Shown here: positions 8,153-10,081 of the stretch, piece after piece | How positions within the stretch are numbered: the stretch's first letter is position 1 | How the letters are laid out: each line of letters starts with the position of its first letter | Assembly (NCBI RefSeq): GCF_013282215.1 | Contig: NZ_CP048103.1 | Coordinates: 806,001-870,000, forward strand | Source: Kroppenstedtia eburnea | GTDB lineage: Bacteria > Bacillota > Bacilli > Thermoactinomycetales > DSM-45169 | Direction: 5' to 3' | DNA length: 64,000 bases | The notes under the pieces: model-generated | Databases searched by the model: none | Seen by the model: only the letters and a program-made list of their open reading frames with translations | What the model was told of the DNA's origin: nothing | Program-made: the position numbers and the translations under genes

Positions 8153-9025
8153 GTGGGGGAATTTGATGGTTCCCGATTCATGAAGTTTAAGGCGGAACCC
8201 TTTAACACCAAAGGCTCAGAGCTGTTGAAAAATGCCGTGGGCGCAGGTACGCTGAAAGAAGAGGATACTGTGCTGGTGGTGGAACGGGGCGGCGAGCGGC
8301 TCTCCTTCTGGATGTACCAGATGACCACCCATCATGTGGCACAGGGAAGTCTGGGCGGGTTGCCCTATTTGGTGAACTACTGTGCCCTCTGTCACAGCGC
8401 AACCGCCATGGTCCCCGTAATCGACGGCGAGGTGCATCACTTCTCCTGCGTGGGGATTCTCAACGGGATGGCCATCCTGGAAGATCGGGAGACGGGATCC
8501 TACTGGGACATCCAAGGAGAGTGTGTCGAAGGTCCTTTAAAAGGGCGGAAGATGGAGAGCCTGCTCCTGGGACAGATGACGGCGAGACAAGCTTTGAAAC
8601 AGTGGCCCGACATCTCCCTGGCATTGCCGGAGCAAACTTGGATCCAACGCTGGCTCATGCAACCGGCGAAAAACTTCTTCGGACGACACGGAATCTTTCC
8701 TCCCTTTATCAAAAGGACACTGGTCCGACGGGACACCCGACTGCCGGACATGATGAGCGGAGTGGGAATTATGACTGACCAGACGAAAAGGTTTTACCCG
8801 ATTCAGGAGATTAAAAAGGCTGGCGGGGAAATCCGGGATACCTTGGACGGACGTCCGGTGATGATCTCCCTCGATGAGGATGGTTTCCCGGATGTCAGTT
8901 ACACGGATGCCACCGATGGGGATGATGTCCCGCTCTACTTGTATGCCAGGTGGTACGGTTTTTCCCTGACTTACTGTGATTGCGAGATTTATCAGGGGGA
9001 GCGGGATGAATCCGTCGCCTCCTGA
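8153..9025 (+). CDS. DUF3179 family protein (Cys form)
   Basis: A 290-residue protein of DUF3179, function unknown. It has the family core YCALCH (Cys codon 77, 8381-8383), then FSCVGILNGMAILEDRETGSYWD and EGPLKG; the CxxCH arrangement looks like a redox or metal site. No signal peptide is visible. GTG 8153 is chosen because AAGGAGGG (8137-8144) lies 8 bases upstream. The inverted pair GTTGACA (8091-8097) and TGTCAAC (8114-8120) lies upstream and may be an operator. A paralogue follows at 9221 with a UGA at the equivalent of Cys77. Confidence 0.8.
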   Translation: MGEFDGSRFMKFKAEPFNTKGSELLKNAVGAGTLKEEDTVLVVERGGERLSFWMYQMTTHHVAQGSLGGLPYLVNYCALCHSATAMVPVIDGEVHHFSCVGILNGMAILEDRETGSYWDIQGECVEGPLKGRKMESLLLGQMTARQALKQWPDISLALPEQTWIQRWLMQPAKNFFGRHGIFPPFIKRTLVRRDTRLPDMMSGVGIMTDQTKRFYPIQEIKKAGGEIRDTLDGRPVMISLDEDGFPDVSYTDATDGDDVPLYLYARWYGFSLTYCDCEIYQGERDESVAS

Positions 9026-9034
9026 CCGGATTTT

Positions 9035-9078
9035 ATCTGAAAAGCGGTCTGCCCGGGGGTGGGCCGTTTTGTTTTATT
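9035..9078 (+). terminator. Terminator after the first DUF3179 gene
   Basis: GCGGTCTGCCC folds on GGGCCG around GGGGGT, with TTTTGTTTT after it. Confidence 0.65.
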
Positions 9079-9220
9079 CCAAAAAGAAAGAAGCAAAACA
9101 CATCCTGGAACAAAAGATATCAAATGCGATTATTTTTAAAAGGCGTGCTGTTTGGTCTCTACAAGGAGTCCGTCTTGTGCTACATTGGGATTGCATCAAA
9201 GGGAGAAAGGAGGGGATGAG

Positions 9221-10081
9221 GTGCAGGATTTTGATATCTCCCGTTTTATGAAACAACAGTTCAAGCCGTTTCCGGTCGAGGGCTCTGAACCGTTGAAAAA
9301 CGCCGTCGGTCGGGGACAGATCAAAAAAGAGGACACGGTGCTGGTGGTGAACCGGGGCGGTGAACGCCTCTCCTTCTGGATGTACCAGATGACTTACCAC
9401 CATGTGGCTCAGGGAAAGCTGGCCGGTGAGCCCTACATCGTCAACTACTGAGCGATCTGTCACACCGGAACCAGTATGGTTCCTCTCATAGATGGCGAGG
9501 AGCATCATTTTTTCTGTGTCGGTGTCTACAACGGCCTGGCGGTTTTGATGGACCGGGAGACCCGCTCCTATTGGAACCATATCACCGGGGAGTGTGTCCA
9601 TGGGCCGTTGAAGGGGGAGAAGATGGAGATGCTCCTCCTGGGGCAGATGACCGCAGGACAAGCCTTGGATCAATGGCCCGATCTCCAACTGGCTCTGTCA
9701 AAGCAACCCCCGTTCCGCCGGTTCGTACTCCAGCCCCTGATGAACTTTTTCGGCCGGTTCGGGATTTATCCCCCGGGATTCAAGGGAACGATCATCAAAC
9801 GGGATCGCCGCTTGCCGGATATGAAAAGCGGAGTGGGGATCATGACTTCCCAGGTGCAACGTTTCTATCCGATCAACGTCATTGAACAGGCGGGAGGCGA
9901 GCTTCGGGATACCCTGGTAGGTCGCCCGGTGGTGATTTCAGTCGATGAGGACGGATTCCCGGAAGTTCATTACGAAGATACAGAAGATCCGCAGGATGTT
10001 CCCCAGCACTTATTCACCCGGTGGTACGGTTTTGCACTCACATATCCCAATTGCGAAATTTACGGTGAAGACCCATCATGA
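9221..10081 (+). CDS. DUF3179 paralogue with in-frame UGA: candidate selenoprotein, or gene with one nonsense change
   Basis: A reading frame of 287 codons from GTG 9221 (AGGAGG at 9208-9213) to the stop at 10081, aligned throughout with the paralogue at 8153. A single TGA (9449-9451) interrupts it at codon 77, precisely where the paralogue has Cys77 of CxxCH (here Y-TGA-AICH). The downstream 210 codons remain open and keep family motifs (FFCVGVYNGLAVLMDRETRSYW, HGPLKG, DEDGFPEV). A perfect 6-bp hairpin begins 15 bases after the TGA. Sec replacing a redox Cys next to a bacterial SECIS would look like this; a recent nonsense mutation is the plain alternative. No sel gene lies in the window. 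Confidence 0.6.
9467..9483 (+). promoter_or_regulatory. SECIS-like hairpin after the in-frame UGA
   Basis: GGAACC (9467-9472), loop AGTAT, GGTTCC (9478-9483). The loop begins 21 bases after the UGA and has G in its second position, matching the general bacterial SECIS pattern. The Cys paralogue has GCAACC-GCCAT-GGTCCC there and cannot form the full stem. Confidence 0.45.

What the first reader, a model, noticed from the sequence alone, without database searches (positions are those of the whole stretch)
9221..10081. DUF3179 paralogue with UGA at the Cys position: candidate new selenoprotein family
The tandem paralogue at 8153 has Cys at codon 77 (YCALCH); the copy at 9221 has UGA at exactly codon 77 and is otherwise open with an intact start, RBS and family motifs. 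A 6-bp hairpin starts 15 bases after the UGA with a G in its 5-base loop, as in bacterial SECIS elements, and this hairpin cannot form in the Cys paralogue. Established: Sec commonly replaces a redox Cys in a UxxC pattern. Inference: selenocysteine rather than a nonsense mutation. I know of no described DUF3179 selenoprotein.
Basis: partly seen in the sequence, partly recalled or inferred. Interest (0 to 1): 0.85.

Follow-up and report, generated by a model that had tools for sequence, protein, structure and literature searches.

The report
DUF3179 selenoprotein with Cys-type twin
The in-frame UGA in this gene is almost certainly read as selenocysteine, because the genome has the whole selenocysteine machinery and relatives in many phyla have the same UGA followed by the same RNA hairpin; the protein family was, however, already listed as a selenoprotein family.

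Summary
In detail: the DUF3179 gene at 9221-10081 has UGA at codon 77, and the tandem paralogue at 8153 has Cys there. A 7-bp hairpin lies 15 nt after the UGA and cannot form in the Cys gene. Selenocysteine is the right reading. The closed genome (same genus as Kroppenstedtia guangzhouensis) has selA, selB, tRNA-Sec(UCA) and a selD with its own in-frame UGA. Within the bacterial family, 8 UGA genes in 6 genomes all lie in Sec-machinery-positive genomes; the 3 machinery-negative genomes have only Cys forms or none. 69 more homologues from about nine phyla have UGA at the same codon, and 65 of them form the whole stem, far above what the coding sequence alone would give. The claim of a new selenoprotein family is wrong: two reviews list DUF3179 (UxxC/T), citing Zhang & Gladyshev 2007. 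What appears new is its presence in a family of aerobic Bacillota, at least three Sec/Cys exchanges there (best read as Sec to Cys, which a 2026 review calls rare), and a relative that lost its UGA by recombination between the tandem genes. Biochemical function is unknown; a UxxC redox enzyme is inferred.

The parts
9221..10081 (+). DUF3179 selenoprotein gene (286 aa, Sec at residue 77, U-A-I-C motif)
   Evidence: UGA homologues
9207..9213 (+). ribosome-binding site AAGGAGG of the selenoprotein gene
   Evidence: sequence
9449..9451 (+). in-frame UGA, codon 77, read as selenocysteine (inferred)
9467..9483 (+). SECIS-type hairpin, 7 bp, GUA loop (A-GUA-U), 15 nt after the UGA
8153..9025 (+). tandem DUF3179 paralogue with Cys (TGT) at the same codon, no hairpin
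9041..9070 (+). terminator-like hairpin between the two genes (separate transcription units likely)
   Evidence: 3 found, 1.3 expected in shuffles, so weak alone

Best explanation
The gene encodes a DUF3179 selenoprotein. UGA codon 77 is decoded as selenocysteine by SelB with tRNA-Sec(UCA), directed by the hairpin 15 nt downstream inside the coding region. The product is probably a thiol/selenol oxidoreductase whose working motif is U77-x-x-C80, cycling between a selenol/thiol pair and a selenenylsulfide. The neighbouring Cys copy is a paralogue whose UGA was most likely changed to a Cys codon, after which the hairpin decayed. Shown by sequence: gene, UGA, hairpin, sel genes, recurrence, conservation. 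Inferred: actual Sec insertion, redox chemistry, direction Sec to Cys. The substrate is unknown.
For: selA 609 bits, tRNA-Sec UCA, selB, selD with in-frame UGA and its own hairpin in the closed genome. Family-level co-occurrence: 7 of 10 genomes are selB+selD positive; all 8 UGA DUF3179 genes lie in 6 of these, and the 3 negative genomes have only Cys DUF3179 or none. 69 homologues of other phyla have UGA at this codon, and the only other stop in any of them is at the extreme end of one (L085); selA is present in 17 of 18 such genomes tested. Hairpin conserved beyond coding constraint, with base-pair changes on both sides. pN/pS about 0.2 after the UGA. Residues 77 (U/C) and C80 are invariant in 64 homologues, H60, H61 and Q64 nearly so. 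A TlpA/thioredoxin-like gene is near DUF3179 in 4 loci of 2 phyla (name is my reading of the sequence), a weak hint of a redox partner.
Against: No protein-level data. The nearest relative, K. guangzhouensis, is sel-positive yet has only a Cys-type copy, so the Sec form is dispensable. Single-gene hairpin p-values against synonymous codons are modest (0.02-0.17); the strength comes from the set. A free-energy test over 48 nt was not significant for single genes of the family. Function rests on the UxxC motif only.
Confidence: 0.96

Rival explanations
1. Nonsense mutation: a recently broken paralogue that keeps reading-frame features by chance.
For: A Cys copy lies next to it, so one copy could be lost without harm.
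Against: UGA at the same codon in 7 other family genes and 69 genes of other phyla; conserved hairpin; purifying selection downstream; sel genes present.
Confidence: 0.02
2. UGA is read through as another amino acid (Trp or Cys) by suppression or a changed code.
For: Cys stands at this position in paralogues.
Against: UGA is also the ordinary stop of this same gene; the genome has tRNA-Sec(UCA) and a Sec-type hairpin follows the codon.
Confidence: 0.02
3. Sec is inserted, but in this bacterial family the Cys copies are ancestral and the UGA forms were gained from them (Cys to Sec), as is usual for bacterial selenoproteins.
For: Plain parsimony also allows one U-to-C and two C-to-U changes on the tree; PMC13188914 calls Cys-to-Sec the common direction.
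Against: All 69 sampled outgroup genes are UGA; Cys rows held as one clade are rejected (p-AU 1e-71); UGA genes in distant parts of the clade share the identical 17-nt hairpin; one Cys gene (L031, Marinithermofilum) keeps the whole hairpin, and Cys genes as a set keep more stem pairs than coding alone gives (64 against 56.3, sd 2.7).
Confidence: 0.12

Closest known systems
DUF3179 (PF11376) selenoproteins first listed by Zhang & Gladyshev 2007 (Olavius algarvensis deltaproteobacterial symbiont), as tabulated in PMC9312934 and PMC13188914
   Same: Same Pfam family, one Sec per protein, UxxC/T motif
   Different: Those were reported from a marine symbiotic deltaproteobacterium; this one is in Bacillota with a tandem Cys paralogue. 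The 2007 paper itself was not held
Bacterial SECIS (bSECIS) consensus
   Different: Nothing of note
Sec-containing SelD of the same genome
   Same: In-frame UGA followed by a nearby hairpin
   Different: Different protein family
Rieske [2Fe-2S] domain fold
   Same: Model residues 46-145 align to Rieske ferredoxins, about 91 residues, rmsd 2.4-2.6, Z 7.2; nearly all listed rows are Rieske domains
   Different: Z is in the range the tool calls middling; no profile similarity (hhalign probability 0.3%); CxH...CxxH ligands are not conserved; by the aligned ranges they would not fall on U77/C80

Membership tests
DUF3179 (PF11376) | Score over Pfam gathering cut-off | tested here: met
   98.6 bits against 27
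Bacterial selenoprotein | In-frame UGA at a position that is UGA or Cys in homologues | tested here: met
Bacterial selenoprotein | SECIS hairpin just downstream fitting the bSECIS model | tested here: met
Bacterial selenoprotein | selA, selB, selC, selD in the genome | tested here: met
Bacterial selenoprotein | Selenium present in the protein | not testable with these tools
   needs 75Se labelling or mass spectrometry
Rieske iron-sulphur protein | Rieske fold | tested here: inconclusive
   VIA-align Z 7.2 over 91 residues, middling by the tool's note
Rieske iron-sulphur protein | Profile match to PF00355 and CxH...CxxH cluster ligands | tested here: not met
   No Rieske hit in Pfam for 64 members; hhalign to a Rieske alignment 0.3%; ligand pattern not conserved

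The most novel reading that the evidence does not exclude
In one family of aerobic Bacillota the DUF3179 selenoprotein was changed from Sec to Cys at least three separate times, leaving Sec and Cys twins side by side, a Cys gene with a still intact SECIS hairpin, and a Kroppenstedtia species in which recombination between the twins removed the UGA. The protein may also be a Rieske-like fold without the iron-sulphur cluster that works through a selenol.
Probability: 0.3. Interest if true: 0.55.

Novelty: new member of a known kind. Interest (0 to 1): 0.4.

Why it matters
It corrects an annotation trap: by the standard code this gene reads as two broken pieces. It shows that this little-studied family is a selenoprotein in about ten phyla. 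The Sec and Cys twins in one genome give a natural pair for asking why Sec is kept or dropped, in a direction (Sec to Cys) that PMC13188914 describes as rare and mainly known for FdhA and SelD.

Tried and rejected
NCBIfam gave no model for either copy. Rfam gathering search of the window: no hit. Overall folding energy of 48 nt after the UGA against synonymous codons was uninformative per gene; a stem-specific test was used instead. PDB sequence search gave nothing significant. Foldseek against PDB gave no match below E 0.001; against viral models one hit to an uncharacterised Indivirus protein, not followed. hhalign to Rieske proteins of the same bacterial family failed. A by-eye mapping of H61-x15-U77-x-x-C80 on the Rieske CxH-x15-17-CxxH pattern was dropped because the aligned ranges place the Rieske ligands elsewhere. 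Gene neighbourhoods across phyla showed no common partner. No phage record matched.

Full report
Observation. The gene at 9221-10081 (+) starts with GTG after AAGGAGG, has TGA at 9449-9451 (codon 77) and is otherwise open to its TGA stop. Both it and the tandem copy at 8153 are DUF3179, PF11376. The paralogue has TGT at the aligned codon. The hairpin at 9467-9483 is 15 nt after the UGA, -8.3 kcal/mol, and has no counterpart in the Cys gene.

Machinery. The window lies in a closed 3.56 Mb genome that holds selA (609 bits), a tRNA-Sec with anticodon UCA, selB (322.6 bits) and a selD with an in-frame UGA at residue 11 of the matched stretch followed by its own hairpin. Kroppenstedtia guangzhouensis is in the same genus: its DUF3179 locus in the named collection has the coordinates of the same-genus genome G003.

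Recurrence. In ten genomes of the same family, 8 DUF3179 genes in 6 genomes have a TGA at exactly this codon and nowhere else inside the gene. selB and selD over their cut-offs occur in 7 of 10 genomes; all UGA genes are in these, and the three genomes without them have only Cys copies or no copy. In a named genome collection, 69 further homologues from Chloroflexota, Gemmatimonadota, Acidobacteriota, Planctomycetota, Thermodesulfobacteriota, Myxococcota, Rokuibacteriota, Calditrichota and Pseudomonadota have UGA at this codon; a seventieth was frame-broken and not used. selA was found in 17 of 18 of those genomes tested. The search patterns did not include the UGA codon, and the first query row carried X there. 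The sample is the best 80 matches, so more distant Cys forms are not represented.

Hairpin. For each gene, codons after the UGA were redrawn among synonyms by the gene's own usage. All seven pairs form in 8 of 8 family UGA genes against a null mean of 0.6, and in 65 of 69 others against 7.8; paired cells 479 of 483 against 377 (sd 6.3). Pairs change on both sides (C-G, G-U, A-U, G-C and U-A at the third pair). The loop has G at its second position in every case. Cys homologues have all pairs in 2 of 12. The element meets the four constraints of the bSECIS model in PMC13188914. Downstream of the UGA pN/pS is 0.18-0.23 between UGA orthologues.

Prior knowledge. Two reviews list 'DUF3179 domain-containing protein, pfam11376, UxxC/T' among known selenoprotein families; the 2026 review's reference is Zhang & Gladyshev 2007; that paper was not held. 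An NCBI plasmid record names a homologue 'DUF3179 domain-containing (seleno)protein'. I found no paper on selenoproteins with Thermoactinomycetaceae or Kroppenstedtia in the held library. So the family is known; this occurrence appears unreported, within the limits of that library.

History. DUF3179 was found in 9 of 399 sampled genomes of the class, all in this one family, which points to acquisition from another phylum. On a careful tree rooted on other phyla, Cys and UGA rows need at least three changes and one Cys clade is rejected (p-AU 1e-71). All outgroups are UGA, UGA rows in distant parts of the family share the identical 17-nt hairpin, and the Cys gene L031 still has it intact. Sec-to-Cys is therefore the likelier direction, though plain parsimony alone does not force it. 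In K. guangzhouensis the single copy is a chimera: the first three quarters match the Cys copy (for example 22 against 2 informative sites in the first 60 columns) and the last quarter and downstream flank match the Sec copy (17 against 1), so its UGA was most likely lost by recombination between the twins.

Function. The AlphaFold2 model is confident (mean pLDDT 94.1). U77 ends a strand and C80 lies in the following turn. Both are invariant, with H60, H61 and Q64 nearly invariant. Residues 46-145 resemble Rieske domains (Z 7.2), but without conserved cluster ligands or profile similarity, so this stays a lead. A thiol/selenol oxidoreductase using U77-x-x-C80 is my best guess, from the motif and established chemistry of UxxC selenoproteins; the substrate is unknown.

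Verdict. Selenocysteine: yes, with high confidence from sequence. New family: no. Interest is moderate, mainly for the Sec/Cys twins and the repeated exchange in a family of aerobic Bacillota (aerobic growth is from my general knowledge of these genera).

Noticed in passing
L067:5001-5858 (Kroppenstedtia guangzhouensis): Single DUF3179 gene is a chimera of the Cys copy (5' three quarters) and the Sec copy (3' quarter plus downstream flank).
   Followed up: yes
L031 (G006, Marinithermofilum abyssi, reverse strand): Cys-type DUF3179 that keeps the intact SECIS-type hairpin GGAACCAGTATGGTTCC: a likely SECIS fossil.
   Followed up: partly
L029 and L032 (G008, Melghirimyces thermohalophilus): Adjacent fragments of a degraded DUF3179 gene (residues 52-106 and 239-283 only), with Tyr at the Sec/Cys position.
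   Followed up: no
L099, L106, L129, L141: A TlpA/thioredoxin-like gene lies within 2.5 kb of UGA-type DUF3179 in Gemmatimonadota and Gammaproteobacteria: possible redox partner.
   Followed up: no
L077:8189-9970: A protein with a Rieske-type start lies near UGA-type DUF3179 in five Caldilineaceae loci.
   Followed up: no
model m18ffeaa99924 (window 9221-10078) against BFVD: Uncharacterised Indivirus protein A0A1V0SD44 matches the DUF3179 model (E 3.6e-8, TM 0.5-0.6).
   Followed up: no
G000:C1:2431964-2432893 (L039): selD of the same genome is itself a selenoprotein gene (in-frame UGA); formate dehydrogenase alpha here has no in-frame UGA.
   Followed up: partly
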